From positions 1-48,237 of the forward strand of contig JAISDJ010000307.1 in NCBI GenBank assembly GCA_031264865.1: a DNA stretch of 48,237 nt, in the 5' to 3' direction. The first letter of the stretch is position 1, and the number at the start of each line of letters is the position of its first letter. Below are positions 10,113 to 38,148 of the stretch, piece by piece. The notes below the pieces were generated by a model. It saw only the letters and a program-made list of their open reading frames with translations, had not been told where the DNA came from and did no database searches. Source of the DNA: Tannerellaceae bacterium (GTDB lineage Bacteria > Bacteroidota > Bacteroidia > Bacteroidales > Tannerellaceae). Made by a program: the position numbers and the translations under genes.

Positions 10113-11651
10113 TTACTTTAACTCTAATACAACGATAGACCGGGGAGGGAGCGTTACGTTTAGTTTGCCTTTTTCCAGTTTAGCACCGGTGAAGGGGACG
10201 GGCTTTACTTTTTCGGGGTTTTCGAATGTATTATGGTCGTTAATGGAAGGCGAGGTAAGGATACGTCCGCTTACGGTTTTGAGGGTGGTATTGTCCAGTG
10301 TAACCGACAGGCTGTTGCTTTTGTCTATATCTACATTAGCCAATGTGAGGTGGATCGTTCTTTTGGCATCGCGTGAAGCGGAAGCGCTTATAACGGGCAC
10401 TTCGCGGTTGCCGTCTACGATTAATTTTTCACAACTTACATCCATCGGCAGATAGGTAGCATCCTGATGTACTTTAAACATTTCGAATATATGATAGGTG
10501 GGAGTCAACGTCATTTTGCTTCCATTGGTAAGGATCATCGATTGAAGTACGTTTATGATTTGTGCGATGTTAGCCATTTTCAGCCGGTCGGTATATTTAT
10601 GAAAAAGATTCAGCGTTAAGGCTGCTACAAAAGCATCGCGCATTGTGTTTTGTTGGAATAGGTGTCCCCGGATTGTGCCGGGTTCTTCATCAAACCAGGT
10701 TCCCCATTCGTCGAGCATTAATCCGATTTTCTTTTCCGGGTCGTACTTATCCATAATCGTGATGTGTTTCTTTATCACTTCTTCTATTTCCAGGCATTTG
10801 CCTATTATCCAATAATACTCATTGGTGTTAAAATCGGTTGCCGAGCCTTTACTTCCATTCCAACCGGTAGTGGTGTAATAATGTAGAGAAAGGCCGTCCA
10901 TACGTCCGCCTACGTTTTTCATTAACACTTCCGTCCAGTTATAATCGTAATCGCTGGCGCCGCTGGCTATTTTAAAGAGACGGTTGCCATCATACGTACG
11001 GCAGTAGGTTGAATAGCGACGGTAGATGTCGGCATAGTATTCGGGGCGCATGTTTCCGCCGCATCCCCAGCTTTCGTTTCCCACTCCCCAGAACTTCACT
11101 TTCCAGGCGTTGTCGCGCCCGTTCTCCCGTCGAAGGCGCGCCATCGGGCTGTCGCTGTCCGAATTGACATACTCTACCCATTTAGCCATTTCTTCCACGG
11201 TTCCACTGCCTGCATTGGCGCTGATGTAAGGCTCTGTTCCCAATAATTCGCAGAGATTCAGAAACTCATGTGTTCCGAAACTGTTGTCTTCAATGGTTCC
11301 TCCCCAATTTGTATTCACCATTTTAGGACGGTTTTCGTATGCGCCGATGCCATCCATCCAATGATATTCGTCGGCAAAGCAACCTCCCGGCCAGCGGAGG
11401 TTCGGTATCTGTAGTTTTTTCAGCGCATCCAATACATCATTCCGGTAGCCTTGCGTATTCGGTATATCGGATGCGGGGCCAACCCATAATCCTCCGTAAA
11501 TGCAGGTGCCTAAATGTTCGGCAAAATGACCGTAGATGTGTTTACTGATTTGTTGTTTTCCTTTATCAGGATAAATGCGGATACTTGCTTCCCGTTGTGC
11601 AGAAAGAGGGAGCGAAAGAATGGTTGCCAGGCAGAATAGAAGTGTTTTCAT
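10113..11651 (-). CDS. GH51 alpha-L-arabinofuranosidase, secreted
   Basis: 512-residue glycoside hydrolase of family 51, which releases terminal L-arabinofuranose from arabinan or arabinoxylan. It has a signal peptide ([19 protein letters not shown]), the family opening ([20 protein letters not shown]), [13 protein letters not shown], the acid/base Glu193 in [11 protein letters not shown] and the nucleophile Glu315 in [17 protein letters not shown]-terminal beta-sandwich ends at RSIVVLELK. It is not linked to a SusCD pair; only the broken lipoprotein gene follows. The preceding ~160 bases are AT-rich and are its likely promoter region. Confidence 0.93.
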
Positions 11652-11814
11652 GATACTGTTTTTTGAGTATTAAACTTATGGCTATAAAAGTATATAAAAA
11701 ACACTTATCGTATATGCGAAAGAGAATCTTTTACGATTTTATTTCTATACGTTCACTCCACGCAGCATTTCTCTTTATATAAGCACGGATTTAGTAAACA
11801 GGATGCTATAATTT

Positions 11815-11870
11815 GTCAGGGGTATTCTTACGGATAATCATTTATGATTATTCGCATAAATACCCCTGAC
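11815..11870. terminator. Long hairpin between GH51 and amidohydrolase genes
   Basis: GTCAGGGGTAT (11815-11825) pairs perfectly with ATACCCCTGAC (11860-11870). The interior adds GGATAATC against GATTATTC with one G-T pair, giving a near-continuous 56-base hairpin. It lies 40 bases past the stop of the minus-strand amidohydrolase, where a terminator is expected, but neither strand has a clear T run. It also marks the left edge of the GC-rich block. Confidence 0.5.
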
Positions 11871-11909
11871 TTCAATTCAAAAACCGGAACCCTTTCCGTA
11901 ATTCGTTTA

Positions 11910-13139
11910 TCAGTTGTTTATTTGCGGATACAGCTCCCTGGCAACAAAAATATCACAGTCATCGTATAATTTGTAAATATCATCCAATGAAGGCGACTTA
12001 TCCTTCCTCCACCCGGTGATCTGTTCATACAACGTACCGAACATTTTATCTTCCGTTTCCCCGGTCCGCTGCATGTAACCGTCGCCCGCCTGGTTGAACA
12101 GGAGTTCCCAATTGAAATAATTCTCGGTATTCGTGCCCCGGTGATAACCATAAACTCTCTCCCGGAGCATGTCGGCCATATCACATAGCGGGCAATGCCG
12201 GTTTTCCTTATCTACGGTCAGCAAGCGCGGAAGTTTTTTTTCCGCACCTTTCACCCAGACCGGTATGGCAGGGGTCACGGGCGGATAGCCTATGACAGTC
12301 CACATGGTGGTGAACGATGCGTCCTCACCCGGTTTTACACCTTGGATGACTACGGCACAGGAGGTGCTCCGGCGTGCGATAAAATCCTGCTCTGCAAACC
12401 AGCCGGTAGTTTGCGGTTTATTAAACTGCCCGTCTTTCAGGTCAATACCCAGCAGGGGGTTGTGAAACGAACGGGACAGGTTCTGAAAGAACCACTGCGG
12501 CGTAATCTGCCCGGTTGCGGAAACGGTGAACAACTTCTCCGAGGCTTCCTGGTAGCGAACATAGCCCGCTCCTTCATTCAACTTACCGCTAACCGAGAAA
12601 TTGGTGCGGACTAAATACCCATGGGGGGCAACATCCGGGTCGTTCACGTCATACTCCTTATATCCTGTACTGTTCACTTCAAAATAAGAGCCGTTTCCCT
12701 GCTCGTCTATCACTCCATAGTTCGAGCGTACGTTCATCGGGCGCTTCAGGGTGTCCAGGTAATAGCGGAATTCGGCCAAGGTGGAGCAGATTCCCAACGC
12801 TTGTTTCATCACGACGCCGTTTTGCTTGCTGCTTCCTTCGTCATTTTCTTCCACCAAATTATAAGAGAGCGTGTTCATAATCGAGAATCCGGTATCATTC
12901 GTCCCAATCCAGACGGAGCGCGGATTGGCGGCATATCCTGTGACGGCCACAAAGCCATATTTCTCGCCCTTCATATAGCGCACACAGTTCAACAAATCAT
13001 TCGTGTCACGATTTTTCCACATAATGGGACGCCCGTCGGGAGTCACTTTGCCCGATACAATAGCGGAAGTGCAGGAAAAGCACTTTTCCGCGCCAGATGC
13101 GAGAAATGCGCACAATAGCAATAGAATCCTGTATTTCAT
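11910..13139 (-). CDS. Ntn-type linear-amide C-N hydrolase (C45/choloylglycine-hydrolase-like)
   Basis: 409 residues with a signal peptide (MKYRILLLLCAFLASGAEKC). Directly after it comes FSCTSAIVSG, in which Cys23 followed by Thr-Ser fits the N-terminal nucleophile of choloylglycine hydrolases and acyltransferase-type C45 peptidases, freed by processing. GRPIMWKNRDTN (37-47) is the paired substrate/oxyanion strand, and NYGVIDEQGNGSYFEVNS resembles the mid-domain of these Ntn enzymes. It should hydrolyse a linear amide (N-acyl amino acid, peptide-like or bile-acid-like) in the periplasm. It is last in the SusC-SusD-carboxypeptidase-GltS operon, which suggests that it processes the imported amide. 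The exact substrate is unknown. Confidence 0.72.
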   Translation of the reverse strand: MKYRILLLLCAFLASGAEKCFSCTSAIVSGKVTPDGRPIMWKNRDTNDLLNCVRYMKGEKYGFVAVTGYAANPRSVWIGTNDTGFSIMNTLSYNLVEENDEGSSKQNGVVMKQALGICSTLAEFRYYLDTLKRPMNVRSNYGVIDEQGNGSYFEVNSTGYKEYDVNDPDVAPHGYLVRTNFSVSGKLNEGAGYVRYQEASEKLFTVSATGQITPQWFFQNLSRSFHNPLLGIDLKDGQFNKPQTTGWFAEQDFIARRSTSCAVVIQGVKPGEDASFTTMWTVIGYPPVTPAIPVWVKGAEKKLPRLLTVDKENRHCPLCDMADMLRERVYGYHRGTNTENYFNWELLFNQAGDGYMQRTGETEDKMFGTLYEQITGWRKDKSPSLDDIYKLYDDCDIFVARELYPQINN

Positions 13140-13239
13140 ACGATTAATTTATTTTTTTCTTGTCGGCATATAGAACCCGCTTTTAATCATTAACTTGCAT
13201 AGGAATGATAGTGCTCGTTCCATCTATCTATTATATTCT

Positions 13240-14574
13240 TTATTGTTTCTTTCCTGCATACCATCCCTTAAAATAAGCAACAGCCAGTACCGACAGGCCG
13301 GCCGCCAGACAAATAAAGGAGAATAGCAAACCGTAGCCGGCGCAGAACACGGCCGGCGCGAAAGTGATCAGCGAAATCTCTACCGGCGCGATAAACAGAT
13401 AGGCCAGCGCGTAGCTGTCCAGCGCGCGGCTTCGCATTTTCGGATCCACCACGCGGAGCAGGGCGATGCCCATTGCCATGGTACCTGTGAACCATCCCCA
13501 GGTGAAAATGGATTTCTCGAACCAACAGTCTTTCATCAGCAGGCGCCCCATGGCAATGACATAGAGCAGCGTCAGCACAAGCCCCACCAGCAGGAGGATG
13601 CTGAGCGGAACAATGTATTCCATCACCACCGACAACTTGATGGATGCGATGCCAAACGCCACCAGCAGGTCTGTAAATGTCCCACTGATATGCCCCACTG
13701 TTTGTGGGCATACGTAGTCGCTCACCCGCGTATGGTCGAATATCCTTTTGACGAGCAAACCGATGACGAATGCACAACTGAATATGGGCAGCTCAAAACC
13801 GCTTACGAAATAGGATACTAATTTGCTGACACCGTATCCGCCCAGTGCGATGGCCAAAACCACAACCAGGTTGAACGTCAATGAGTCGATGGAGATGGAC
13901 GAAGTGGACGACTGGCCCATGCTTTCGCGCTTCTCCAAAGGAAGCAAGCCCGTGCGCAGTTCGTGGGGCAGTTCGTTGTAGTTGGCCAAAAAGGCCGTGT
14001 GACGCTTCCCTGTGCCCCACTTGACGATGACCAGTCCGAAGATGACTGCCGCCACAATGCCCACGGTGGCGGCGGTCATGGCCAGCGTCAGGATTTCGTC
14101 ATAGCCCAGGTTGGCGAACGACTGTCCGATGGCTGCCGCCGTGCCATGCCCGCCACAGTATCCGCTGGGCATGGTGATACCGAAGCCCGGACTGAGCGGC
14201 CAAAACTTGTTCAGCACCAGCAGTCCCAGCAGTCCGCCCAGCGCCCATTGCAGCAGCAGTCCGGCTTGTGAGTAGGCCCACATGCTTCCTACGGCGGCCC
14301 CTTCGCCTTTCACCTTTTGAGAGGTGAGGGGCAACGACCCGAAGATGAACGCTATCAGGATGCCGGCATAAGTACCCATCTGGGCGGACAGTGGAATGAG
14401 GTCGAAGCCGTTGGGCCCCAGTATCAGTCCGAGAAAGCCGGCCAGCAGACTGGGCGGAATGAAGAGTTTCTGGATCAGTTTGATCTTAACCCTTATCAGC
14501 TTGCCCACAAGCATCAGCAGCGAGATAATACCCGCGTCGACAAAGAGAGTCCAGGGAGTGAAGTTTTCCATCAT
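13240..14574 (-). CDS. gltS: GltS-type sodium:glutamate symporter
   Basis: Polytopic inner-membrane protein of 444 residues with about ten to twelve hydrophobic segments. The diagnostic loop GFGITMPSGYCGGHGTAAAIG (first half) corresponds to the GltS re-entrant loop, and the second half has the matching TVGHISGTFTDLLVAFGIASI. The family imports glutamate with sodium. I start at ATG 14574 (MMENFTPW); the frame is open to a TTG at 14583 but that codon is unlikely. It lies five bases after the carboxypeptidase stop, so the two are co-translated. Its place behind SusCD and a carboxypeptidase suggests it takes up the released glutamate. Confidence 0.85.
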   Translation of the reverse strand: MMENFTPWTLFVDAGIISLLMLVGKLIRVKIKLIQKLFIPPSLLAGFLGLILGPNGFDLIPLSAQMGTYAGILIAFIFGSLPLTSQKVKGEGAAVGSMWAYSQAGLLLQWALGGLLGLLVLNKFWPLSPGFGITMPSGYCGGHGTAAAIGQSFANLGYDEILTLAMTAATVGIVAAVIFGLVIVKWGTGKRHTAFLANYNELPHELRTGLLPLEKRESMGQSSTSSISIDSLTFNLVVVLAIALGGYGVSKLVSYFVSGFELPIFSCAFVIGLLVKRIFDHTRVSDYVCPQTVGHISGTFTDLLVAFGIASIKLSVVMEYIVPLSILLLVGLVLTLLYVIAMGRLLMKDCWFEKSIFTWGWFTGTMAMGIALLRVVDPKMRSRALDSYALAYLFIAPVEISLITFAPAVFCAGYGLLFSFICLAAGLSVLAVAYFKGWYAGKKQ

Positions 14575-14579
14575 GATAA

Positions 14580-17249
14580 TCAATAATTGGATTTATAACC
14601 GGCCTGGATGCACGTGTTGTAGAACAGGGCGTTCATAAACAGCTTGCTCGTGGCGAAAAAATAGGAACGGAAGTTCATGTCGTCGGCAAAGACAATCACC
14701 AGCCCGCTTTTACAGGGTTTAGCGAAGGCGGCCGGCGTGTCTGCCAGCAGCTTGCGGTTGGAGGCCGAGAGGAAACCGGACAGCAACGGTTGCTCCTTGT
14801 AGTGCAGCGGAGAGGCGTAGGGATCCTTGTCTTTCCGGAAGATGATGCTGTTGTTCTTCATCACCGCGATCTCATCCTGGTCAAGCCCCCAGCACAGGGG
14901 ATGAGTCTTATCGAGGCGACAATTCAGGATCACGCCATCGATGCTTTTTCCCGCGCCGGATTCCGCTTTTTCCGCGAACGGGCGGTAATTGATGGTGTCG
15001 CCTTTTTCCGAGAAATTACCGTCGTCTTTTGATTCAGGCGCGTCAGCATTCTCTTTCGAGGAGATATTGTCCATCGTTTGCGCAACGCTCTTTGTCTTCA
15101 ACGATAGCAGACCGTTTTTGTTCAGCCATTCGTAAGCCTTGCCGGTGGCAATCAGCGTACCTCCGGCGGCCACCCACTCTTTCAGGGCGGCTTCGCTCGT
15201 ATTGTTCAGGTTGGGGATACCGTTCGGCAGGATGATGACGTTGTACGCCTGTAACTCTTTGGCCGTGAGCGAGGGGCTTTCTATCAGCACGGGCCGCATC
15301 TGGAAACGCTTGTCGAGCAGGAACCAGATTTCCCCTGAATCGGAAATACCCATTCCGCGGCCTACCAGCACGGCTACCTTGGGCTGCACGAGGGGCTTGA
15401 AAGCGGGACTGCCCATATCTATATCCTCCATCAGTCCGGTGGTGGCGGAATAAATATCCACTCCTGTTATTTGTGCAAGCCCTGCCAGCGTGTGATAAAG
15501 TTCGTCGGCAGAAAGCGACTGATTCTGCACCAACACTTGGTATGTGCCGTAGCCCATCTGTTTTTCCACATCTCCGTTCTTAAAACGGAACGGACGTTTG
15601 CTCGCGCTGACGCGGATGCCCTTGAGTTGGAGTTCATACACTATTTTGGGAGCATAAAACTCTGTGTTTTCAAACAGATAGCCTACTCCACTCTTGCCGC
15701 CAACCATTTGTCCCACGGGAAACGGATTGTCTGTTACCTGTTCACCCAGCAATCCCGAGACGCTCTTGAGGGGGGCATAGTGCAAGTTAAACGCATGGGG
15801 GAATGTCCAGGTGGAAATGTCATAAAACGTACTGTCATTGTATTCCAGCATGTCCTCCATCAGGGTCTTCACCATTATGCTGTATTTCTGAGCTACGGGG
15901 ATAACGTAGGCCTCTTCCTTTATAAACCTATTCGTACCGACGGGGATGTCTTTTGCCAGATGATACACGTCGATATGGTGGCGTGCCATATTTTCCAGGA
16001 AATGAAAAGCCACGGATTTGGAGCCGCGTGTGTCGAACACATAACCTTGCACGGCCTCCTTGCGGGCATCGGTGTCGGAGCGCTTGTAGTACTCCTTTTG
16101 GTAATCGAGCAGCCGGAGACGCATCTCTCGGGCTGCCGTGAGCGTGGCGAGGGAGGCCAATGCCTGATTGCGCACGGTCCAGGCAAACGACCATACCCCG
16201 CTCGGAGTATTCCGTAGGTGCCCACGGGTGGAACCTTGCTCATAAAGCAGACATACGGAACCGTGTATGTCGCCATACGCCGCGCCTTTGCCGTAGTAGA
16301 AGTCGTCATAGCCTTCCTTGGAATAATAAGTAGTGCCTATATTGTCAAGAGCTTTGGCAGTATAGGCAGAGATCTCCGCCGTGAGGTCCTGGTTGAACTG
16401 CGTGGTGAGCGGATGGGTACGTTTGGGATGGCCGGGACTGAAATAATACGGGCGTATGGCGCCTTGTTCGTGCTGGTCGACCACCACGTTGGGCAGCCAT
16501 TCAAAGTAAACGTTTAGTCCATTGACACCTTCGGGATGCTGCGCCATCAGCCAGTCGCGGTTACAGTCGATCCAATAGTGATTGGTGCGGCTCGATGGCC
16601 ATGGCTCCGTAAATTCGCGGGAATTCAGGTCGCTGACATCCGTCAGGCTACGTGAGCTATTCACCCAGGAGGCGAAGCGGTTGATGCCGTCCGGATTTGC
16701 GCCGGGAGTCATCACCACGACTTCATTCTTCAGCAGTTCATCTATTTCGCTACCTTGGGCGGCTGCCAGATAATAGGCCACAGCCAGCGAGGCGTTCACT
16801 CCTGAAGCTTCGTTGCCGTGTATGCTATAAATAAGGCTGGTCACTACGGGCATATCGCCCGTGCGTAGCGATCCCGACCGGTTCGGATCACTCAACTTCA
16901 AATGTTCCTCCCTGATGTGGTCCAGATTCCTCTGGTTCTCGGCGGACGTAAATACGACTTCGATAAACGGGCGATGCTGGTAAGTACGTCCGGTTTCTTT
17001 GAGCGAGACACGGTCACTGTGCTGTGCAAGCAATTTCATATAGTCCGTTACCTGGTCCCATCCGGCATGCTGTTGTCCTATCTGGAAACCGAGGACGCTT
17101 TCAGGGGTGGGAATTTGCGGGTCGTAAGTCTGGCTGCCTCCGGGAAGGAACCAGGCCAGATCATACGTGTATTTTTCGGGTTGCGGTTGAGCAACAACGC
17201 TTGCTGCCAGAAATCCCGGCAATAGACAGAAGATAATAAATTTTCTCAT
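14580..17249 (-). CDS. M14-family zinc carboxypeptidase with C-terminal GATase-like domain
   Basis: 889 residues, secreted (MRKFIIFCLLPGFLAASVVAQ). The M14 catalytic domain occupies about 55-400: zinc ligands His144 and Glu147 in HGNEASG, third ligand His260 in VVDQHEQG, and general base Glu337 in CLLYEQGSTRG, with DCNRDW as the substrate-carboxylate region. Around 625-730 there is a class-I-amidotransferase/DJ-1-like fold (VAVLVGRGMG, AYNVIILPNG, AAGGTLIATG), seen in large Bacteroidetes M14 proteins and probably not catalytic. It trims C-terminal residues from peptides or gamma-glutamyl-type bonds. It lies 42 bases after SusD and just before GltS in the operon. Confidence 0.88.
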   Translation of the reverse strand: MRKFIIFCLLPGFLAASVVAQPQPEKYTYDLAWFLPGGSQTYDPQIPTPESVLGFQIGQQHAGWDQVTDYMKLLAQHSDRVSLKETGRTYQHRPFIEVVFTSAENQRNLDHIREEHLKLSDPNRSGSLRTGDMPVVTSLIYSIHGNEASGVNASLAVAYYLAAAQGSEIDELLKNEVVVMTPGANPDGINRFASWVNSSRSLTDVSDLNSREFTEPWPSSRTNHYWIDCNRDWLMAQHPEGVNGLNVYFEWLPNVVVDQHEQGAIRPYYFSPGHPKRTHPLTTQFNQDLTAEISAYTAKALDNIGTTYYSKEGYDDFYYGKGAAYGDIHGSVCLLYEQGSTRGHLRNTPSGVWSFAWTVRNQALASLATLTAAREMRLRLLDYQKEYYKRSDTDARKEAVQGYVFDTRGSKSVAFHFLENMARHHIDVYHLAKDIPVGTNRFIKEEAYVIPVAQKYSIMVKTLMEDMLEYNDSTFYDISTWTFPHAFNLHYAPLKSVSGLLGEQVTDNPFPVGQMVGGKSGVGYLFENTEFYAPKIVYELQLKGIRVSASKRPFRFKNGDVEKQMGYGTYQVLVQNQSLSADELYHTLAGLAQITGVDIYSATTGLMEDIDMGSPAFKPLVQPKVAVLVGRGMGISDSGEIWFLLDKRFQMRPVLIESPSLTAKELQAYNVIILPNGIPNLNNTSEAALKEWVAAGGTLIATGKAYEWLNKNGLLSLKTKSVAQTMDNISSKENADAPESKDDGNFSEKGDTINYRPFAEKAESGAGKSIDGVILNCRLDKTHPLCWGLDQDEIAVMKNNSIIFRKDKDPYASPLHYKEQPLLSGFLSASNRKLLADTPAAFAKPCKSGLVIVFADDMNFRSYFFATSKLFMNALFYNTCIQAGYKSNY

Positions 17250-17291
17250 AATATAAATAAGTATAATAATTAGGCAAAAAGAAGCGCCTTG

Positions 17292-18929
17292 TTACAAAGG
17301 ATTCTGTTCGCAAAGCGGGTTCATGTCAATCACATCCTGATGGAAAAGGAACTGCCACTCCTTGTGCCCGGCCTCCCGGTAACGGTTTTCATTTCCGATT
17401 ACGGTACCATTGTCATACATGTTGAAGTTGGACCATTCGGGGTTCCAGTCATCGGGAAGCACAAAGGTATCACCCTCTTTATCGCCTACTACAATCTTCC
17501 ACCATTTGCTGTATCCGGCAGGAGGCTGCACGCCTCTGTCGAGCGGCAGGTTCAGGCGTTTCAGGTCGAGGAAGCGAAAGCCTTCGCCCCAGAGTTCCAC
17601 ACGACGCTGAATCATGATCTCGTCTATCAGGTCCTGTCCCGTCCCGGTGGATTTCACGTATTGCGGGTCGCGGTGGCGAGCCAGCGGGTAGAGCGCGTCC
17701 TGCGCGTCCGCATCGTGTCCGCCGGCGCGGGCATAGCCTTCAGCCATCACCAGCATCATTTCGGGAAGACGCATGAAAGGCACGTCTCCACAGATATCAG
17801 CCGGATTGGTAAGTAGGTATTTATTTGCCATATAATTGGCTACACGCCCATTGGCATAAGTGGAATAAACCGGAGTGCCTTCCACAGCCCAGGTGCTTTT
17901 GTCCGCCGCGTGCGGGAACCATATTTTCTTGCGCACGTCCGTAGGGCTTATCCGGTCATACAGCCAATTGTAGATGGCACGGGGTGTGTTGCCGTTGTAC
18001 GAGCGGAAGTTGTTCGACATGTACTCGTGGAAGGAGCGTAACGTGGCGGTCTGCTCCGTGTTGGCTTTCTTTCCCCACAGCCATTCGGTATTTGTCTGGT
18101 CGCTGAAACGGTTGTTGGTTGTGGTATAGGTATCATCCTGCAGCTTCGCGCCGCTCTGCTCCACCACCAGTTTGGCCATTTGCGCCGCTTCCAGCCACTT
18201 GCTCTGTGTCAGCAGCACGCGCGCTTTCAGTCCGCGCGCCACGTGCACGTTGATGTGCGATTTGTTGGGACGTTCCACCGTGGTGGCCTCCAGATAGCGG
18301 ATGGCCTCGTCCAGATCCGCGTTGATTTGCGCGTACGCCTCTTCCACCGTAGAGCGTGCTTTTGGTCCCAGACCGCTGTCGTCGCGCATTACCACGCCGA
18401 GTTGTGTATTATCTCCTTCCGCTTTGTAGCGTTGCCCCCACAACTGCACCAGGTGGTAGTAACCGAAGGCGCGGTAGAACAGCGCCTGCCCTTTGATGTT
18501 GTTCTTCTCGTTGTCCGGCCCGCTGGCATCGTCTATGTTGTCCATGATCATGGTGGTATTGGTCACGAAATAATACAGCAGGGTGAAGAAATGCTTCAGG
18601 TGTCCGCTGCCCGTGTAGTTGCGGTGCGTCACCCACTTCGCTTCGCTTCCGTATTGCGCGTTCGAGTAGGTGTACACCAGGTCTTCGCCCAGCATGTCCA
18701 TCCATATCATCAGCATCTCGAAGCCGCCGCGTGGAGCGGTTCCGCTCAGGTCGTTCGTCCACATCAGCTTGTGCAGTCCGTTCACAGCCAGCATGGCGTT
18801 CTTAGTATCCGTAAACACGATACTCTCGTCGATGTTCACCGACGACTTGGTTTCCAGAAAGTCTTCTTGGCATCCGCCAGCGATGAGGATGAACAGAAGT
18901 ATTGCCGGTAAAAATATGTTCCGTTTCAT
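17292..18929 (-). CDS. SusD/RagB-family nutrient-binding lipoprotein
   Basis: 545-residue surface lipoprotein. The signal MKRNIFLPAILLFILIAGGC puts the lipidated Cys at 20. The SusD pattern follows: N-terminal NID..IVFTDTKNAMLAVNGL helix, TPR-like central helices, and near the end the RRVELWGEGFRFLDLKRLNLPL signature common in RagB/SusD, then MNPLCEQNPL. It forms the lid of the SusC transporter encoded 15 bases upstream. With an M14 peptidase and GltS behind it, its ligand is more likely a peptide or amide than a glycan; that is inference from context. Confidence 0.93.
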   Translation of the reverse strand: MKRNIFLPAILLFILIAGGCQEDFLETKSSVNIDESIVFTDTKNAMLAVNGLHKLMWTNDLSGTAPRGGFEMLMIWMDMLGEDLVYTYSNAQYGSEAKWVTHRNYTGSGHLKHFFTLLYYFVTNTTMIMDNIDDASGPDNEKNNIKGQALFYRAFGYYHLVQLWGQRYKAEGDNTQLGVVMRDDSGLGPKARSTVEEAYAQINADLDEAIRYLEATTVERPNKSHINVHVARGLKARVLLTQSKWLEAAQMAKLVVEQSGAKLQDDTYTTTNNRFSDQTNTEWLWGKKANTEQTATLRSFHEYMSNNFRSYNGNTPRAIYNWLYDRISPTDVRKKIWFPHAADKSTWAVEGTPVYSTYANGRVANYMANKYLLTNPADICGDVPFMRLPEMMLVMAEGYARAGGHDADAQDALYPLARHRDPQYVKSTGTGQDLIDEIMIQRRVELWGEGFRFLDLKRLNLPLDRGVQPPAGYSKWWKIVVGDKEGDTFVLPDDWNPEWSNFNMYDNGTVIGNENRYREAGHKEWQFLFHQDVIDMNPLCEQNPL

Positions 18930-18944
18930 ATAAGCATATAGTTT

Positions 18945-21900
18945 TTAGAAGGTGAGATTAAGTCCGAAAGTAAATACGCGTGCGGGGAGATATACGTCCA
19001 CATTGCCACTGTATCCTGAAAAGATATTGCGGCGCGGATAGATGCCCTGGCGGCTGGTAATCAGCAGCAGGTTGTCGCCTGAAGCATATACGCGCAGTCC
19101 GTTCACGCTGAACCGATTGAGCAGCTTTTTGGGGATGTCGTAACTCAGCGTGGCGTTGGTCAGTTCCAGCATGTCCGAGCTGGTGAGCCAGCGAGTAGAA
19201 GTGCCCGCGTATAAGTCGGTGTTGCCGAACTCTATGCGCGGTACGCTGGTGATGTCGTTTTCCTTTTGCCAGCGTTGCAGAATATCCACATGTCGCGTGG
19301 AACCGAGCGGATAGCCATAAGGTTCGGTCATCAGGCTGCTGTAACCCGAATCGTAGAATTTGCCGCCCAGCTGGTAGTAGAACTGTACGCTAAGCGTAAC
19401 TCCCCGCCATGATACGGCTGTGTTGAAGCCTCCCGACACGGAAGGGGTGGAAACGCCCGACCAGTTGCGTTCGGCCTTCGCCACTTCCGAAGTGTAGAGC
19501 TTGCCGTTCAGTTCCACGAGATTCATCGCCGCCTTGTCCGCGTCTGTCGCTTCATTGTAGGCGGTCATGGTCTCCTCGTTGGGAATGTAGAGACAGTCAC
19601 CGTTTTGGGGATTAACGCCTGCCCACTGGCGGAGGTAGAACTCGTAGATGGAATGTCCTTCTTCTATGCGGTGCACGCCGTCATTATAGGGATCAACCGG
19701 CAGGGAGGTAATCTTGTTTTTCAGGTACATGGCATTCAGCCCCACGCTCCACGTGAAGTCTTTCGTCTGCACAGGCTTGCCGTTCAGCTCCAGTTCCATA
19801 CCGCGGTTGTACATGGTTCCCGCATTCTGGTACGCGCCGGTGAAACCCGCGTCCACCGGTTGCGGCGCGTTAAAGAGCAGGTTGCCCGACTGGCGGTTGA
19901 AATACTCTGCCGACCCGGTCAACCGGTTCTTGAACAGCTCGAACTCCAATGCCACGTCGCTGCTTTTCGATTTCTCCCATTGCAGTTTTTTGTTCCGGAC
20001 GGTGTTATCCTGGATGTAGCCCGGCTCCGTACCGTTGGGCGACAGCACATACATCGTCTGCCAGCCGTAATAGGTGCCGATGTTATCATTGCCCACCTCG
20101 CCATAAGACACGCGCAGCTTCAGCAGGTCGATGAATGTCAGCGGCTGCATGAAAGCTTCCTGGTCGATGCGCCAGCCTGCGCCGAAGGAGAAGAAGTTGC
20201 CCCAGCGAGCGTCCTTGTAGAAGCGGGAAGATCCGTCGCGTCGCGCCGAAGCGGACACGAAGTAGCGGCTATCGTAATCATAGTTCACGCGGGCCAGGTA
20301 ACCTTCCGTGCTATATTTATCCGTACGCGAAGTGCCGTCGTTCCATTCATTGTAGTTCTCAAACTCGTAATTGCCGTTGTCCACCCGCATGCCTTTCTTC
20401 TGGGCGGTCAGGTAGTTGTATTCCCAACTGTAACTCTCATGCCCCACGAGCACGTCGGCATGGTGCTTGCCGAAATCCTTTGCGTAGGAGAGCAGTTGGT
20501 TGAATGTCCACGTGGTGGTGAAGCTGTTCGATTTTGTGGAAGTGACCGTTCCCATGTTGTTCTTTTCGGGATAGTAAACGCCGGCGATACGCGCCAGGTA
20601 GGCATTTGCACCCACCGCGCCGTTGGCCGTGAGCTTGAAACCGTCCAGGAACCGGATCTCCGCATAAGCTTTCGCGTTCAGCGTGTTGCGTTTGTAGCCG
20701 TCGTACCGGTTCTGCAAGTCGATGGCAGGGTTCGCGTCGCCTATGTAGGGACGTCCGCCTGCGCCGAAGTCATATTGTCTGTTCCCATATTCGTCGAGCA
20801 GGTACTCCTTCGTATCGGCATCGTGCAAATGAATGGGATAGATAGGACCCACGTATCGCGTAAAGCGGAACGGGTTGCCGAGCACATTGCTTCCTTCATC
20901 CTGGTTACCCTTAGACTCGCTAAGGTTGCCGTTCAATGTTCCTCCTATTTTCAGGAACGACGTAATCTGTGAGTTGATGTTGGCGTTCATCGTATAGCGC
21001 TCAAACTCCGAGCCGATAATGTATCCGCTCTCGGTGAGATAGCCCACGGACAGATAGTAGTCCGATGTGTTCGTCCCGCCGCTTACGTTCATACCGGCTT
21101 CCGTACGGTTGCCAAGCTGCTGGATGGCGCCCAGCCAGTCCGTGTCGTCACCCCACATGAACCTGGCGTTAGGATTCAGGTTGCCGTATTCGTCCACTAC
21201 CTGGTCATTCGGCACGTTGAAAGGATTCATCACCAGCGTACCCGACATCAAATCCCTTGCCGCTTCCTGTCCTGCCAATACGGGGTCGGTGCCGCCTTTT
21301 ATCTTCTGGTTACGCTGGTTCTCCCAGTGCACTTTCAGGAAGTCCGCCACTCCCAGCGTCTTGTAGTCTGCGCTCTGGCGGGCCGTGAAGCCCTGGTTGA
21401 ACTTCACATTGACGCTTGTGCGTTCCTTGTTTCCTGCCTTGGTATTGATAATCACCACGCCGTTGGCCGCACGAGCACCGTACAGGGATGCGGATGAAGC
21501 GTCTTTTAGCACCGATATGCTTTCGATGTCACCCGGATTGATGCTGCTGATACTGTTGTCGTAGGGCACCCCGTTCAGAATGATGAGCGGCGTGTTGCTT
21601 GCCGAGAATGAACCTAATCCTCTGATGTAGATACTCGATTCCGACCCCGGCTGTCCGTTGGCGCTGCTCACCTGCACGCCGGGCGTAGCGCCCACCAGGG
21701 CGCCGGTGGCATCGGTCAGAGGGCGTGTCGCCAGCTTCTCGCTCTTCACCATGGATGCCGAGCCGGTGAACGAACTCTTTTTCGTCGTGCCGTAGGCCAC
21801 TACCATTACCTCGTCCAGTAACCTGGAATCACTTTCCAGATAGACCGTCATTTCCGACTTAATCGGCAATTTCTGAGAAACCAGTCCTATGCAGGAAACG

Positions 21901-22193
21901 ACCAGCGTTTTGGCTCCTGCAGGCACATTCGCAAGCGTAAATTGTCCGTTAATATCGGTGACGGCGCCTATTGTGGTACCGTCTATCCATACATTTGCGC
22001 CGACTACGACGTCATTGTCTTCCCTGGAAAGCACTTTGCCTGTAACCTTTCTCTCTTGTTGCGTGATTCCGATACCCGCCCCTGCCACATTGCAGACAAA
22101 AGTGAGGAACAGCACGAAAACGAGCAGTCGTCTTAGGGAACAGCGGATATCAGAGCGTACCCGCATACTAATTCTCATACTACATAGATGCAT
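18945..22193 (-). CDS. SusC/RagA-type TonB-dependent receptor
   Basis: Complete SusC-class transporter of 1082 residues. The N-terminus is a signal sequence (RRLLVFVLFLTFVCNVAGAGIG). It is followed by a carboxypeptidase-regulatory-like domain (KVTGKVLSREDNDVVVGANV), the plug (VVAYGTTKKSSFTGSASMV; LKDASSASLYGARAANGV) and the barrel ending in ARVFTFGLNLTF. There is no STN domain. Three Met codons (22193, 22178, 22166) are possible starts; none has a clear Shine-Dalgarno site. It heads the operon SusC-SusD-M14-GltS-amidohydrolase. Base composition is clearly higher in G+C than flanking genes. The two divergent 7TM-AraC genes are its likely regulators. Confidence 0.94.
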   Translation of the reverse strand: MHLCSMRISMRVRSDIRCSLRRLLVFVLFLTFVCNVAGAGIGITQQERKVTGKVLSREDNDVVVGANVWIDGTTIGAVTDINGQFTLANVPAGAKTLVVSCIGLVSQKLPIKSEMTVYLESDSRLLDEVMVVAYGTTKKSSFTGSASMVKSEKLATRPLTDATGALVGATPGVQVSSANGQPGSESSIYIRGLGSFSASNTPLIILNGVPYDNSISSINPGDIESISVLKDASSASLYGARAANGVVIINTKAGNKERTSVNVKFNQGFTARQSADYKTLGVADFLKVHWENQRNQKIKGGTDPVLAGQEAARDLMSGTLVMNPFNVPNDQVVDEYGNLNPNARFMWGDDTDWLGAIQQLGNRTEAGMNVSGGTNTSDYYLSVGYLTESGYIIGSEFERYTMNANINSQITSFLKIGGTLNGNLSESKGNQDEGSNVLGNPFRFTRYVGPIYPIHLHDADTKEYLLDEYGNRQYDFGAGGRPYIGDANPAIDLQNRYDGYKRNTLNAKAYAEIRFLDGFKLTANGAVGANAYLARIAGVYYPEKNNMGTVTSTKSNSFTTTWTFNQLLSYAKDFGKHHADVLVGHESYSWEYNYLTAQKKGMRVDNGNYEFENYNEWNDGTSRTDKYSTEGYLARVNYDYDSRYFVSASARRDGSSRFYKDARWGNFFSFGAGWRIDQEAFMQPLTFIDLLKLRVSYGEVGNDNIGTYYGWQTMYVLSPNGTEPGYIQDNTVRNKKLQWEKSKSSDVALEFELFKNRLTGSAEYFNRQSGNLLFNAPQPVDAGFTGAYQNAGTMYNRGMELELNGKPVQTKDFTWSVGLNAMYLKNKITSLPVDPYNDGVHRIEEGHSIYEFYLRQWAGVNPQNGDCLYIPNEETMTAYNEATDADKAAMNLVELNGKLYTSEVAKAERNWSGVSTPSVSGGFNTAVSWRGVTLSVQFYYQLGGKFYDSGYSSLMTEPYGYPLGSTRHVDILQRWQKENDITSVPRIEFGNTDLYAGTSTRWLTSSDMLELTNATLSYDIPKKLLNRFSVNGLRVYASGDNLLLITSRQGIYPRRNIFSGYSGNVDVYLPARVFTFGLNLTF

Positions 22194-22257
22194 AAAAAAA
22201 CAGTTTTTTCAGTTTATAATATTACGTAATTAAATGTGAAAGCATATTAAATTGTTA

Positions 22258-22291
22258 CAAATATATAATTCCGGCTTGATATAAGATCAAA
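22258..22291 (-). promoter_or_regulatory. Candidate promoter of the SusC-amidohydrolase operon
   Basis: Minus strand TATATTTG (22265-22258) is a full match to TAnnTTTG. TTTG (22291-22288) lies 22 bases upstream, slightly farther than usual. The leader to the start at 22193 would be close to 58 bases. Confidence 0.5.
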
Positions 22292-22350
22292 AAATCGTAA
22301 AAAACTTTCTATTCAATAATCAGCAATTTACTATTATTGATTCATACGAT

Positions 22351-22380
22351 TTTGTAATTTGTTTATTTTTAATAAATTTG
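22351..22380 (+). promoter_or_regulatory. Promoter of the first 7TM-AraC gene, which also decides its start
   Basis: TTTG (22351-22354), 18 bases, then TAAATTTG (22373-22380) fits the Bacteroidetes consensus. The apparent TTG start at 22378 lies inside this -7 box, so translation must begin at the ATG at 22405, about 18 bases after the predicted transcript start. Confidence 0.6.
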
Positions 22381-22404
22381 CGGTACAAAACCGTATTTTA
22401 TCCA

Positions 22405-23568
22405 ATGATAAAAATTTTTCTGCTTGGAATGCCGTTGATTGTAGCGTCAGCAGGATGCCTGATCATCTATCAGGCATGGCGCGATACGTCAAGCAGAAAC
22501 GGACGAACACAAAATCTTCATCTGCTGCTTTTCTTGCTGACATTGGCGGGAACATGGCTCGGCTGGTTTTTATGTCATCTGGCGCCGGATGTCTTTAATG
22601 TCTGTTTTCCGTTTTACAGCGTGGTAGCGCTGTTGATGCCGGTCTTCTTGTGGGCTTATATCCGTCTCGTTCTGGTTGAGGAACGAAAACAGGCTTCTAT
22701 ATTGCCTGTATGGAAACATTATATATTGCCGGTGGTGTTGAGTATAACGGTAAATATCCTGTCCAATCTGCCTGACGGTTTTAGGAAAACAATCCCTCCG
22801 GCCATGCTGCTGCTGAACATCTTGCACCTCGTCCTTGCGCTGGTTTATGGCAGCTTGTCCATAAGCATACTTATCCGGCGGTACCGGAAGAACCGTATGC
22901 CGGATGTTTTTCCTTTTCCTTCCGGCTGGTTGCCGACAGTGTCTGCCATTATCGGCGTACAACTGCTTACTATCGTACTTTCTGTATTTACCGGCGAACC
23001 GGAAAGTTGCGCCGGCTTGCCCTATATGGTTACAGGCGCTTTGCTTATTTCCATCTTGACAGGTAGGCTGGCGTACCGCGTGATTTGTACGGAAGCCTTA
23101 TTGTCCGGACAGGTTATTACAGGTGAAGATATGGAAGGAGAAGAGAAAAGCGCTGCTGTGCAACCGCCCCCCAAACGCAGTAGGCAGAAGAAAAATGAAA
23201 GCCGTGATGAAGATGAAGGAGTTGACCTTTCCCCCTCGGCAGCTCCCGACCTTTCACGCAGGCAGTTTGAAAGCTACGTTTTCAGCGTCAAGCCCTGGCT
23301 TAACCCGAAGTTATCTATTACGGGGCTTGCCGAACGAATGAAAACGAACCGTACCTACCTGTCGGCATTTGTTAATAAGGAATACGGCATGAATTTCAAT
23401 CGATGGGCAAATGACTGCCGGTTGAAAGAACTGGAACACCTGAAGTCATTGCCGGAAAATGAAAATGCGAGCCTGCGCTCTCTTGTGGCAAAGGCCGGAT
23501 TCGGAACTTACCAGGGATATTACCTGGCACGTAACAATACAGAAGAAAAGGAAGAGGCAGATGAATGA
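22405..23568 (+). CDS. Membrane-bound AraC-type regulator (7TM + HTH), first of a tandem pair
   Basis: 387 residues from the ATG at 22405. The N-terminal ~210 residues are hydrophobic with about seven transmembrane segments (MIKIFLLGMPLIVASAGCLI..., LHLLLFLLTLAGTWLGWFL, ...). A charged, disordered linker follows (PPPKRSRQKKNESRDEDEG). The C-terminal ~95 residues form an AraC-type helix-turn-helix domain (SITGLAERMKTNRTYLSAF, NKEYGMNFNRW, LVAKAGFGTYQGYY). It would sense a ligand or state at the inner membrane and bind DNA while anchored. It diverges from the SusC operon and overlaps the next, paralogous regulator by eight bases. Confidence 0.85.
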   Translation: MIKIFLLGMPLIVASAGCLIIYQAWRDTSSRNGRTQNLHLLLFLLTLAGTWLGWFLCHLAPDVFNVCFPFYSVVALLMPVFLWAYIRLVLVEERKQASILPVWKHYILPVVLSITVNILSNLPDGFRKTIPPAMLLLNILHLVLALVYGSLSISILIRRYRKNRMPDVFPFPSGWLPTVSAIIGVQLLTIVLSVFTGEPESCAGLPYMVTGALLISILTGRLAYRVICTEALLSGQVITGEDMEGEEKSAAVQPPPKRSRQKKNESRDEDEGVDLSPSAAPDLSRRQFESYVFSVKPWLNPKLSITGLAERMKTNRTYLSAFVNKEYGMNFNRWANDCRLKELEHLKSLPENENASLRSLVAKAGFGTYQGYYLARNNTEEKEEADE

Positions 23569-24730
23569 GATTATACGCATCATGGGTTATATGGCGCCGC
23601 TGACTACCGCATTGTTCTGCCTGGCGTTGCTGGCTGCCTACCGTTTTACCACAGCGCACATCTCCCGTGAAGACAAGGGATTGCTTTCCATCATTGCCGT
23701 TTATTATGTCGTGATGACTGTCAACTGGCTGCAACCGCTGCTGTATATCTACTATCCGGAGGTTTACGCGCAGGAGTCCGCGGTGTATTTCATCGGTTTG
23801 CTGCTTACCCAGGCGGTGTTTTACCACATTATATATAAGATTACCGCAGTGGAAGGGCAAAAGCCTTTCCCGTTTATCCATTATGCCTTGATCGGTGTGG
23901 CAGGAACACTGTTTGCCATTTGGTCGCTACTGATACCTTACGACGTACGGTTGACCCTGACGAATACGGGTGAGATGCAGGCAGGCTATGGAGCGTATTC
24001 CATGCTGTCCGTCTATAAACTGGAACTGCGGGGAATCTATACGGTTATCTATGGATTCCTTTGTATACGCAGGCTTCTCCGCTACCGGAAAATCATCCTG
24101 GAATATTCCGTCGACCGTGGACGAAGAAGTTCGCCGACATGGCTATATAGCCTGATTATATTTACGCTGGTACTTGCCCCCTTGCCGATGATCGCGTTTT
24201 TTATTCCCAACCGGACGCTGGCAATTTCGCTGCTCCCCATGTGCTGGGAAATCCCTTACATGGCGCTGTTTGTGGTACTCCTTTATAACCTACTGGCGGA
24301 AAACTATGTGATAATCCGTCCTGAAAAGCAGGAAGGCAAAAAAGGAAGGAAGCAACGAAAACTGTCCAAAACGGATTTTGAAACGTATATGTCCCAGAAG
24401 AAGCCCTACCTGAACTCCAAGCTGAGAATTACCGACCTGACCCTCCTGCAGGGAACCAACCGCACGTACCTTTCCGGATTTATCAACAAGGAGTACGGCA
24501 TGAACTTTTCCCGTTACATCAACCTCAAACGCCTTGAGGAACTGAATCGCCTGCGTACAGACGCCGGATACAATGACCTGAGCGAAGTGGAACTGGCGCT
24601 GAAAGCCGGATTCAGCAGCTATTACGGCTACCGGTATTTTCTCCGGGCGGAAGAGAGGTTGAACAGGAAGCCGTTTGTCGGGCAGGATGCCGAACCAGCC
24701 CGCCCGCGCGGGGACATAAATACGAATTAA
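23561..24730 (+). CDS. Membrane-bound AraC-type regulator (7TM + HTH), second of a tandem pair
   Basis: 389 residues from the ATG at 23561, which follows a GGAAGAGG ribosome site and overlaps the upstream stop by eight bases; the frame is open back to 23459, but that part is the shadow of the first gene. It has seven hydrophobic segments (GYMAPLTTALFCLALLAAY..., IPYMALFVVLLYNLLAENY) and a basic linker (EGKKGRKQRK). The AraC-like HTH has ITDLTLLQGTNRTYLSGFI, NKEYGMNFSRY and LALKAGFSSYYGYRYF. The HTH is plainly paralogous to that of the first gene (NRTYLS.F.NKEYGMNF shared). The pair may act as a heterodimer on the divergent SusC promoter. Its end overlaps the convergent gene by four bases. Confidence 0.85.
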   Translation: MNEIIRIMGYMAPLTTALFCLALLAAYRFTTAHISREDKGLLSIIAVYYVVMTVNWLQPLLYIYYPEVYAQESAVYFIGLLLTQAVFYHIIYKITAVEGQKPFPFIHYALIGVAGTLFAIWSLLIPYDVRLTLTNTGEMQAGYGAYSMLSVYKLELRGIYTVIYGFLCIRRLLRYRKIILEYSVDRGRRSSPTWLYSLIIFTLVLAPLPMIAFFIPNRTLAISLLPMCWEIPYMALFVVLLYNLLAENYVIIRPEKQEGKKGRKQRKLSKTDFETYMSQKKPYLNSKLRITDLTLLQGTNRTYLSGFINKEYGMNFSRYINLKRLEELNRLRTDAGYNDLSEVELALKAGFSSYYGYRYFLRAEERLNRKPFVGQDAEPARPRGDINTN

Positions 24731-25401
24731 AACCGGATGGTTACGGTGGTTATTTTATCTCCCAATGTCCAATTGGGGCCTTGCTGGACAACACGTATTG
24801 CTTCCAGGTCGGAAGTAGGGCAGAGGGATTTTTTTATGTCAAGGTCGTAAGGCCGGCCTTTGGCGTTAACCTTAAAGGCTACAACCACCTGTCCTTTGGT
24901 ATCGCCACATTCGTCGAAAGCCGGGAGGAAGAGGTTTTCATAGATGTATTCCTTATAAGCCCTTTCGCCGGTTGCCGGCTTGGGTTCGCCTTTAATGGTG
25001 TTATCACTCAAAGGAGTCGGTTCGGGAACCGTTAAGGAATGACTGATACTTTGGTCTTGATCCTGGAATTGAGACGCTTCTTCTACTGTGTCTAAAGAAT
25101 AGGCGATATGATTTTCTTTCCGGAGCGGATTATCCTCGTGTAGCAGAAAATAACTGCCTATCCCGATGCAAACCGCCAAGCTGGCGGCAATACCGGCGGT
25201 TCTGGCTAACGAAACCCTTTTGTGCGTCTTCTGGCGGATATCTCTCCTTATATCCTCTATGCGCTTTATCGTATCTTCGTTTTTTACAAGATCATATCCT
25301 TCGATAGCATCAGTCAGAAAAGGATCTTTCATTGCTTCGAGTTCGATGCGTTGCGCCTCTCTTCCTTTGCGGGATTTTGTTATGTAATGCAGGAAGTTCA
25401 T
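24727..25401 (-). CDS. Single-pass membrane protein with TonB C-terminal domain, coupled to an ECF sigma factor
   Basis: 224 residues from the ATG at 25401, which overlaps the sigma-factor stop (ATGA), so the two are translationally coupled; an earlier in-frame ATG at 25422 is less likely. Order: cytoplasmic helical part rich in charged residues (EAQRIELEAMKDPFLTDAIE), one transmembrane helix around 60-77 (AGIAASLAVCIGIGSYFLL), a Pro/Ser/Thr periplasmic linker, and a C-terminal TonB-C-like module (GQVVVAFKVNAKGRPYDLDI...AIRVVQQGPNWTLG). The pairing suggests an anti-sigma-like role for the cytoplasmic part combined with a TonB-type periplasmic sensor or energy coupler. No SusC gene with an STN domain is adjacent. 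Confidence 0.75.
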   Translation of the reverse strand: MNFLHYITKSRKGREAQRIELEAMKDPFLTDAIEGYDLVKNEDTIKRIEDIRRDIRQKTHKRVSLARTAGIAASLAVCIGIGSYFLLHEDNPLRKENHIAYSLDTVEEASQFQDQDQSISHSLTVPEPTPLSDNTIKGEPKPATGERAYKEYIYENLFLPAFDECGDTKGQVVVAFKVNAKGRPYDLDIKKSLCPTSDLEAIRVVQQGPNWTLGDKITTVTIRF

Positions 25402-33329: not shown

Positions 33330-33391
33330 CTTTTTTAGGATTTAAGTAGTGATAAAAAATATTTTTAAAATACACCTAATCAAATGAAACA

Positions 33392-34867: not shown

Positions 34868-34941
34868 TTTATTGTGATTAAAATTGTGATTAAAATAATT
34901 TATAATCTGATGTACCGTTCTCGCATTACAAATCGATCATG

Positions 34942-36501: not shown

Positions 36502-36576
36502 TATTATTATTTTTAATATTTATGTAAAGTTAAAGTAAACTTTGATGTCTCATAAAATGAATTGAAGAAATCATGA

Positions 36577-38136: not shown

Positions 38137-38148
38137 GTCTTTTCTTTT

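What the first reader, a model, noticed from the sequence alone, without database searches (positions are those of the whole stretch)
11910..24730. Glycosidase-free SusCD locus with M14 carboxypeptidase, GltS and an Ntn amidohydrolase: a candidate peptide/amide scavenging system
Seen: SusC, SusD, M14 carboxypeptidase, GltS-type symporter and C45-like amidohydrolase on one strand with gaps of 15, 42, 5 and 100 bases, ending at a hairpin. Known: SusCD pairs import oligomers, M14 enzymes release C-terminal residues (some act on gamma-glutamyl bonds), GltS imports glutamate, and Ntn C45/choloylglycine-type enzymes split linear amides. Inference: the operon captures a glutamate-containing peptide or conjugate (N-acyl glutamate, gamma-glutamyl peptide, folate-like or poly-gamma-glutamate-like), cleaves it and takes up glutamate.
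Basis: partly seen in the sequence, partly recalled or inferred. Interest (0 to 1): 0.78.

Follow-up and report, generated by a model that had tools for sequence, protein, structure and literature searches.

The report
Outer-membrane importer with peptide-cutting enzymes
A gut-type Bacteroidales genome carries a gene cluster that most likely takes up peptide-like molecules, not sugars, trims them outside the inner membrane and imports a released acidic amino acid; relatives repeat the plan with different cutting enzymes and a different transporter.

Summary
SusC-SusD-M14 is a real unit in Tannerellaceae: 31 of 38 M14 genes read have SusC/SusD-like genes within three genes; loci chosen by C45 or GltS give 1 of 22 and 1 of 16. 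SusC and M14 trees agree (r=0.86, 27 pairs), though shared descent alone could give that. M14 follows SusD in 8 of the 10 closest SusC relatives; one contig ends inside SusD; in one (L130) a secreted-type M20 amidohydrolase and an SDF symporter replace M14. GltS is in none of the 9 readable relatives, C45 in two (one internally deleted): the exact five-gene order was seen only in the window.

SDF-family symporters (GltP-like in L041 and L271, an unnamed subfamily in L270, L274, L275) lie in five further SusCD loci with M14, M20, S9 or S51 enzymes. This supports a peptide or N-acyl-amino-acid substrate and, less firmly, a Glu/Asp product. "Glycosidase-free" is only partly right: an arabinofuranosidase lies 258 bp downstream, and at least 3 of the 10 relatives have glycosidase-type genes nearby. 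No paper on SusCD-M14 loci was listed in five searches. No substrate is proven.

The parts
18945..22193 (-). SusC-type TonB-dependent outer-membrane transporter, 1082 aa
   Evidence: TIGR04056 780 bits; best solved match RagA, 371.5 bits, next 306.3; 10 relatives at >=57% identity
17292..18929 (-). SusD-type lipoprotein lid, 545 aa
   Evidence: PF14322 and PF07980 above cut-off; Cys20 in a lipobox-like position (by eye, sequence)
14580..17249 (-). M14 zinc carboxypeptidase, 889 aa, signal-peptide-like start; H144, E147, H260, E337 intact
   Evidence: PF00246; those residues invariant in 23 aligned homologues
13240..14583 (-). GltS-family (ESS) sodium symporter, 447 aa (ATG start possible at 14574)
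   Evidence: PF03616 65.9 bits; only PF03616 match in the genome; overlaps or abuts M14
11910..13139 (-). C45/AAT-like Ntn amidohydrolase, 409 aa, signal-peptide-like start, Cys23
   Evidence: 17 of 24 aligned homologues match PF03417; Cys23 invariant
11815..11870 (-). Strong stem-loop after the C45-like gene; possible 3' boundary of the transcript
   Evidence: -40.5 kcal/mol for 11800-11905, z -6.75; no T-run
11885..11898 (-). Small terminator-like hairpin with T-rich tail just after the C45 stop
   Evidence: Listed; such sites occur at about the chance rate there
22378..23568 (+). Membrane AraC-type regulator 1, divergent
   Evidence: HTH_18 E 5.9e-5, below cut-off; no relative in the related SusCD loci
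23459..24730 (+). Membrane AraC-type regulator 2 (a later ATG may be the true start)
   Evidence: HTH_18 E 2.9e-4, below cut-off; no relative in the related SusCD loci
10113..11651 (-). Alpha-L-arabinofuranosidase just downstream (GH51-like, recalled); doubtful member
   Evidence: PF06964 177.7 bits; a 60% identical homologue follows M14 in L074; separated by 258 bp and the hairpins

Best explanation
A peptide- or amide-scavenging SusCD locus, the protein counterpart of a polysaccharide utilisation locus. SusD/SusC capture a peptide-like or N-acyl-amino-acid molecule and move it to the periplasm with TonB energy. The secreted-type M14 enzyme removes C-terminal residues. The secreted-type C45-like Ntn hydrolase splits a further amide bond, for example an N-acyl cap. 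GltS imports the freed acidic amino acid, most likely glutamate. Shown: the gene families and the conserved SusC-SusD-M14 unit. Inferred: that the substrate is a peptide or amide (about 0.85), that an acidic residue is the product (about 0.55), and the order of the steps.
For: SusC/SusD-like genes within three genes of M14 in 31 of 38 Tannerellaceae genes; of the other 7, 4 are at contig edges and 3 have none. Controls 1 of 22 and 1 of 16. SusC-M14 tree-distance correlation 0.86, n=27, 0 of 2000 permutations. SusC's best solved relative is the peptide importer RagA. Enzymes in related SusCD loci are amide-cutting: M20 (L130, L086, L106 by Pfam/NCBIfam; L270, L271, L274, L275 by my profile), S9 (L099, L131, L274, L275), S51 cyanophycinase-type (L094, L271), C45 (L066, L075, L082, L083). 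L130 lies inside the window clade (support 0.98 with L079; clade 1.0) and has M20 plus a GltP-like SDF, so enzyme and transporter differ together. SDF symporters lie in SusCD-hydrolase loci L041, L130, L270, L271, L274, L275: L130 in the window's clade, the others in two distant SusC lineages. In L157 SDF is next to M14 and a beta-aspartyl peptidase, without SusCD.
Against: GltS is next to M14 only in the window; its closest relatives found (71-73%) sit in another context, L109 and L110. In G299 (L129, 64% SusC) the contig ends inside SusD and no M14 was found anywhere in that 92% complete assembly. The L130-type SDF gene is common (67 of 123 genomes); among its 30 fetched loci only L220, which is L130 itself, has an M14, M20-profile or C45 gene beside it. 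The SDF subfamily in L270 and L274 has no NCBIfam match at E<=1e-20, so its substrate is unknown. The arabinofuranosidase is close, and L074 places a homologue after M14 among glycosidase-type genes. M14b-type SusCD loci point to sulfur amino acids instead. The tree agreement may reflect shared descent and includes near-identical loci. Elsewhere in the phylum SusCD is rarely beside M14: 3 of the best 80 named loci (of at least 550) have SusD there, all Tannerellaceae and all contigs already counted; 3 of 19 in the order sample.
Confidence: 0.55

Rival explanations
1. General peptide scavenging without acidic preference: SusCD-M14 takes mixed peptides, and GltS and C45 are recent add-ons without shared substrate logic.
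For: GltS in 0 of 9 readable relatives and C45 beside M14 in 2; the L130-type SDF is usually elsewhere; M28 and S9 genes converge on L072.
Against: The non-homologous symporters GltS and SDF both occur in such loci; GltS shares the high GC3 of SusC and SusD (0.70-0.71) and is tightly spaced after M14.
Confidence: 0.3
2. Glycopeptide or glycoprotein locus: the arabinofuranosidase and flanking glycosidases belong, and peptidases trim the protein part of an arabinosylated plant glycoprotein.
For: Arabinofuranosidase 258 bp downstream; L074 has M14 followed by a 60% identical arabinofuranosidase and a GH2, with DUF6259, DUF2961 and GxGYxYP genes upstream; L073 has GxGYxYP upstream; L083 has a divergent GH106.
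Against: Strong stem-loop between C45 and the arabinofuranosidase; its GC3 is lower (0.50 against 0.61-0.71); glycosidase-type genes were recognised beside only 3 of 10 relatives, though not every flanking gene was identified.
Confidence: 0.1
3. Conjugate processing: the C45-like enzyme splits bile-acid or fatty-acid amino-acid conjugates and GltS takes up the released amino acid; M14 is incidental.
For: C45 is in the wider Ntn group that I recall to include bile-salt hydrolases; in L109 the 73% GltS relative adjoins a protein with 760.6 bits to 3-succinylcholic-acid synthase (cut-off 800).
Against: M14, not C45, is the conserved partner of SusCD; no bile-acid gene was recognised among the window genes I scanned, which are not all of them.
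Confidence: 0.05

Closest known systems
RagAB of Porphyromonas gingivalis
   Same: SusCD-type importer for peptides; best solved-structure match to the window's SusC; described as responsible for peptide uptake in PMC11817032 (passages read)
   Different: I did not examine the genes around ragAB; here M14, C45 and GltS are in the same cluster
BT2263/BT2264 SusCD of Bacteroides thetaiotaomicron
   Same: SusCD complex whose cavity is said to fit peptides (as reported in PMC11817032, passages read)
   Different: BT_2264 matches the window SusC far less well than RagA (149 bits); neighbouring genes not compared
Sus-type polysaccharide utilisation loci
   Same: SusC, SusD, hydrolases, inner-membrane transporter and regulators in one cluster
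   Different: Hydrolases cut amide bonds; no glycosidase inside the five-gene block
AbgA/AbgB/AbgT p-aminobenzoyl-glutamate utilisation (recalled)
   Same: Same logic: an M20 amidohydrolase frees glutamate from an N-acyl glutamate; relative L130 has M20 plus SDF
   Different: No AbgT-type gene recognised in the genes scanned; here SusCD and M14/C45, with GltS as transporter; L130's M20 matches only the broad TIGR01891 family above cut-off
Cyanophycin degradation (cyanophycinase S51 plus isoaspartyl peptidase; pathway recalled)
   Same: S51 enzymes above NCBIfam's cyanophycinase cut-off lie in SusCD-M14 loci L094 and L271; L157 pairs M14 and SDF with a beta-aspartyl peptidase (312 bits, equivalog cut-off 567; PF01112 above cut-off)
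   Different: The five-gene block of the window has neither S51 nor isoaspartyl peptidase

Membership tests
SusCD nutrient-acquisition locus | Adjacent SusC and SusD genes, same strand | tested here: met
   TIGR04056 and PF14322/PF07980, 15 bp apart
Polysaccharide utilisation locus | Glycoside hydrolases in the same operon | tested here: inconclusive
   None in the five-gene block; arabinofuranosidase 258 bp downstream behind a stem-loop; transcription not testable
RagAB-like peptide importer | Sequence closeness to RagA among solved SusC proteins | tested here: met
   371.5 bits, next SusC 306.3; a sequence ranking only
RagAB-like peptide importer | Binds and imports peptides | not testable with these tools
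   No binding assay possible; structure prediction switched off
M14 zinc carboxypeptidase | Zinc ligands HxxE and His, catalytic Glu | tested here: met
   H144, E147, H260, E337 invariant in 23 homologues; assignment to these roles from recalled M14 motifs
GltS (ESS) symporter | PF03616 above gathering score | tested here: met
   65.9 bits, cut-off 26
GltS (ESS) symporter | Glutamate transport | not testable with these tools
   No NCBIfam hit at E<=0.1; no solved homologue by phmmer
C45/AAT Ntn hydrolase | PF03417 match | tested here: inconclusive
   Window protein no hit at E<=1; 17 of 24 homologues hit at E<=1, best 3.4e-9
C45/AAT Ntn hydrolase | N-terminal nucleophile Cys after processing | tested here: inconclusive
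   Cys23 invariant in 24, directly after a signal-peptide-like stretch; cleavage and activity not tested

The most novel reading that the evidence does not exclude
Bacteroidales carry an undescribed modular class of SusCD loci for peptide- or amide-bound acidic amino acids (N-acyl or isopeptide-linked Glu/Asp, including cyanophycin-like polymers). The amide-cutting enzyme (M14, M20, S9, S51, C45) and the symporter (GltS or SDF) are exchangeable parts, and the window is the GltS version.
Probability: 0.35. Interest if true: 0.78.

Novelty: new variant of a known kind. Interest (0 to 1): 0.6.

Why it matters
SusCD pairs are usually read as sugar importers. A conserved SusCD-peptidase unit, with enzyme exchange inside one SusC clade and recurring amino-acid-type symporters, gives a concrete way to find and test nitrogen- and amino-acid-scavenging loci in gut Bacteroidales, and warns against calling every SusCD cluster a glycan locus.

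Tried and rejected
Murein-peptide recycling (LD-carboxypeptidase, epimerase or NlpC genes expected in the own-genome SusCD-M14b locus L050): rejected, the neighbours are NlpA lipoprotein, an Fe-S protein and a Cys/Met PLP enzyme. Glutathione as the cargo, prompted by those sulfur-metabolism genes: not supported for the window, whose five-gene block has none; the one literature search on it returned nothing.

GltS as a conserved part of the locus: rejected, 0 of 9 readable closest SusC relatives. L130-type SDF as a marker of such loci: rejected, 1 of 30 fetched SDF loci has an M14, M20-profile or C45 gene beside it, and that one is L130 itself (flanks of about 1.5 kb; other hydrolase families were not searched, and one neighbour in L246 looks PepD-like by eye). 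L126, where SDF adjoins C45, was not among those 30. The position test (4 of 4 SDF genes among 2154 non-focal ORFs lie within two genes of M14, C45 or SusD, p about 0.001) is post hoc, includes duplicate loci (L139, L140 and L141 have the contig lengths and gene order of L076, L082 and L088) and is only supportive.

M14 specificity from residues near the catalytic Glu: not attempted, because no solved homologue aligned over that region. Regulators as a conserved marker: rejected. In the scripts and my Reg2 query was in a wrong frame, and the Reg2 GC3 is wrong; redid both (Reg2 GC3 0.63).

The ORF lists in the scripts are mechanical six-frame calls and contain spurious ORFs, so 'within three genes' counts are approximate. 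Of the 31, L078 is a TonB receptor without SusD, L102 has SusC only and L105 SusD only. flags 7 of 80 named loci, of which 4 are receptors of roughly 720 aa without SusD. Weaker M14 hits in 7 further places and 4 fragments were not read. The tree test leaves out loci where another gene separates SusD and M14 (L094, L099, L100, L106) and does not correct for shared descent.
Full report
WHAT IS THERE. The block 11910-22193 (minus strand) holds SusC, SusD, an M14 peptidase, a GltS-family symporter and a C45-like hydrolase, with gaps of 15, 42, about 5 and 100 bp. The M14 keeps H144/E147, H260 and E337 (invariant in 23 homologues). The C45-like protein has Cys23 right after its signal-peptide-like stretch (invariant in 24). 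It has no Pfam hit itself, but 17 of 24 homologues match PF03417 at E<=1. GC3 is 0.61-0.71 in the five genes, against 0.50 in the downstream arabinofuranosidase, 0.52 and 0.63 in the two regulators, 0.48 in the TonB-like gene and 0.40 in the sigma factor. A strong stem-loop without a T-run follows C45, and a small terminator-like hairpin lies between (chance rate). The window is bases 1-48237 of contig C54 in a 4.69-Mb draft genome (94% complete, 6.9% contamination). Its family is Tannerellaceae by inference: named contigs L139 (Parabacteroides MAG) and L140 (Tannerellaceae MAG) have the contig lengths and gene order of family members L076 and L082.

IS IT A UNIT? In 123 genomes of the family, M14 relatives (E<=1e-20) occur in 29. 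By my count of the rows there are 43 distinct genes; I read 38 besides the window's and left 4 fragments unread. SusC/SusD-like genes lie within three genes on the same strand in 31 of the 38; 4 are at contig edges and 3 have none. Three of the 31 are weak: L078 (receptor without SusD), L102 and L105 (one partner only). In the order-wide sample it is 3 of 19 read. In the best 80 named loci of the phylum (of at least 550) 7 are flagged, but only 3 have SusD, all Tannerellaceae contigs already counted. Control loci chosen by C45 or GltS give 1 of 22 and 1 of 16. For 27 SusC-M14 pairs the tree distances correlate at 0.86 with 0 of 2000 permutations as high; common descent would also produce such agreement. 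The linkage is real and lineage-bound.

THE WINDOW'S OWN CLADE. Ten relatives have SusC at 57% identity or more (G334 is split over two contigs). M14 follows SusD in 8 (L072, L073, L074, L075, L076, L077, L079, L083). In L129 (G299) the contig ends inside SusD; no M14 was found in that 92% complete assembly, while a 60% identical end piece of the C45-like gene starts another contig. In L130, M20, a GltP-like SDF symporter, a 184-residue protein and a second M20 follow SusD in M14's place. L130 lies inside the clade, beside L079 (support 0.98; clade support 1.0), so this looks like a replacement. C45 is next to M14 in L083 (6 bp), in L075 with residues 55-218 deleted in frame, and in the next clade in L082 (order C45-M14-SusC-SusD). 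GltS is in none of the 9 that can be read. Its nearest relatives found (71-73%) are in L109 and L110, away from SusCD-M14. The next SusC clade (42-44%) has an S9-like gene after SusD in L131, L134 and L135, 3 of 7 loci read there (Pfam tested on L131 only; L133 has a similar gene beyond an insertion, by eye).

A WIDER PATTERN. Searching the family with L130's M20 gave 18 of 123 genomes and 20 loci. Six of the 20 have an SDF symporter beside M20 (L250, which is L130, and L257, L259, L261, L263, L265). Longer stretches show SusC-SusD-redoxin-M20-SDF (L270), SusC-SusD-S9-M20-SDF (L274, L275), SusC-SusD-S51-M20-M14-threonine synthase-SDF (L271), and M20-SDF without SusCD in L272 and L273. L041 has SusC-SusD-M14-SDF and L094 SusC-SusD-S51-M14-threonine synthase. 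The S51 proteins pass NCBIfam's cyanophycinase cut-off (223 and 130 bits against 126.6). Outside SusCD, L157 has SDF-M14-beta-aspartyl peptidase. The 412-422-residue SDF proteins score best, though far below cut-off, to the Glu/Asp symporter GltP. The subfamily of about 390 residues has no NCBIfam match at E<=1e-20 in the two tested and its substrate is open.

A SECOND TYPE. A more distant M14 group (M14b) sits in SusCD loci with NlpA, MetN-like (below cut-off), Cys/Met PLP enzymes, or an APC permease with CBS (L050 in the same genome, L095, L101, L106, L047). This argues that SusCD-M14 loci as a class handle peptides, and that the inner-membrane module tells which residue is wanted.

MECHANISM. 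Best reading: SusCD imports a peptide-like or N-acyl-amino-acid molecule, M14 (and C45) release residues in the periplasm, and GltS imports an acidic one. The class 'peptide or amide' is well supported; 'acidic' rests on two symporter families and on S51/beta-aspartyl enzymes in relatives, and is weaker. Against it: GltS is unique to this locus; the L130-type SDF is common and usually elsewhere (67 of 123 genomes; 1 of 30 loci with an M14, M20-profile or C45 gene beside it, that one being L130 itself); glycosidase-type genes flank L073, L074 and L083.

LITERATURE. Searches for SusCD/SusC/SusD with carboxypeptidase, M14 or peptidase, or with glutathione and peptide uptake listed no paper whose title or abstract start describes SusCD-M14 loci; one search listed 15 of 220 papers. 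In PMC11817032 and PMC10199937 I read the found passages, in PMC4936053 likewise (irrelevant). RagAB is the known peptide SusCD (listings). The library is open-access papers only, so a description elsewhere cannot be excluded.

Noticed in passing
L050:819-10732 (own genome, contig C152): Second SusCD-M14 locus in the same genome: SusC-SusD-M14b-NlpA lipoprotein-Fe/S protein-Cys/Met PLP enzyme; same order in L095. Looks like sulfur-amino-acid peptide scavenging.
   Followed up: partly
L271:4150-16490: SusC-SusD-cyanophycinase-like S51-M20-M14-threonine synthase-SDF symporter on one strand: the fullest version of the pattern.
   Followed up: partly
L130:863-13849: The M20/SDF version of the locus lies between urease-type genes (urease alpha by Pfam; UreA-like and urea-ABC-like genes by eye only).
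   Followed up: no
L106:7669-14310: M20-M14-O-acetylhomoserine sulfhydrylase followed by nifH (TIGR01287, above cut-off).
   Followed up: no
L109:7891-12146 and L110: GltS relative (71-73%) next to a beta-lactamase-family protein; in L109 it scores 760.6 bits to 3-succinylcholic-acid synthase (cut-off 800). The L110 neighbour was matched by its sequence start only.
   Followed up: no
L126:1372-4050: C45-like gene directly followed by a GltP-like SDF symporter.
   Followed up: no
L157:8583-13573 (Seonamhaeicola MAG): SDF symporter, M14 and beta-aspartyl peptidase in a row without SusCD; single case among 80 named loci.
   Followed up: partly
L075:12382-13146: C45-like gene beside M14 has lost residues 55-218 in frame in a single-contig genome: decay or a shortened protein.
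   Followed up: no
window 31887-41436: Separate locus with three GH30-type genes and two further large ORFs (519 and 1095 aa) that look SusD/SusC-like by size; those two not searched.
   Followed up: no
window 24727-25985: ECF-type sigma factor and a TonB_C-like protein (below cut-off) on the minus strand just beyond the regulators.
   Followed up: no
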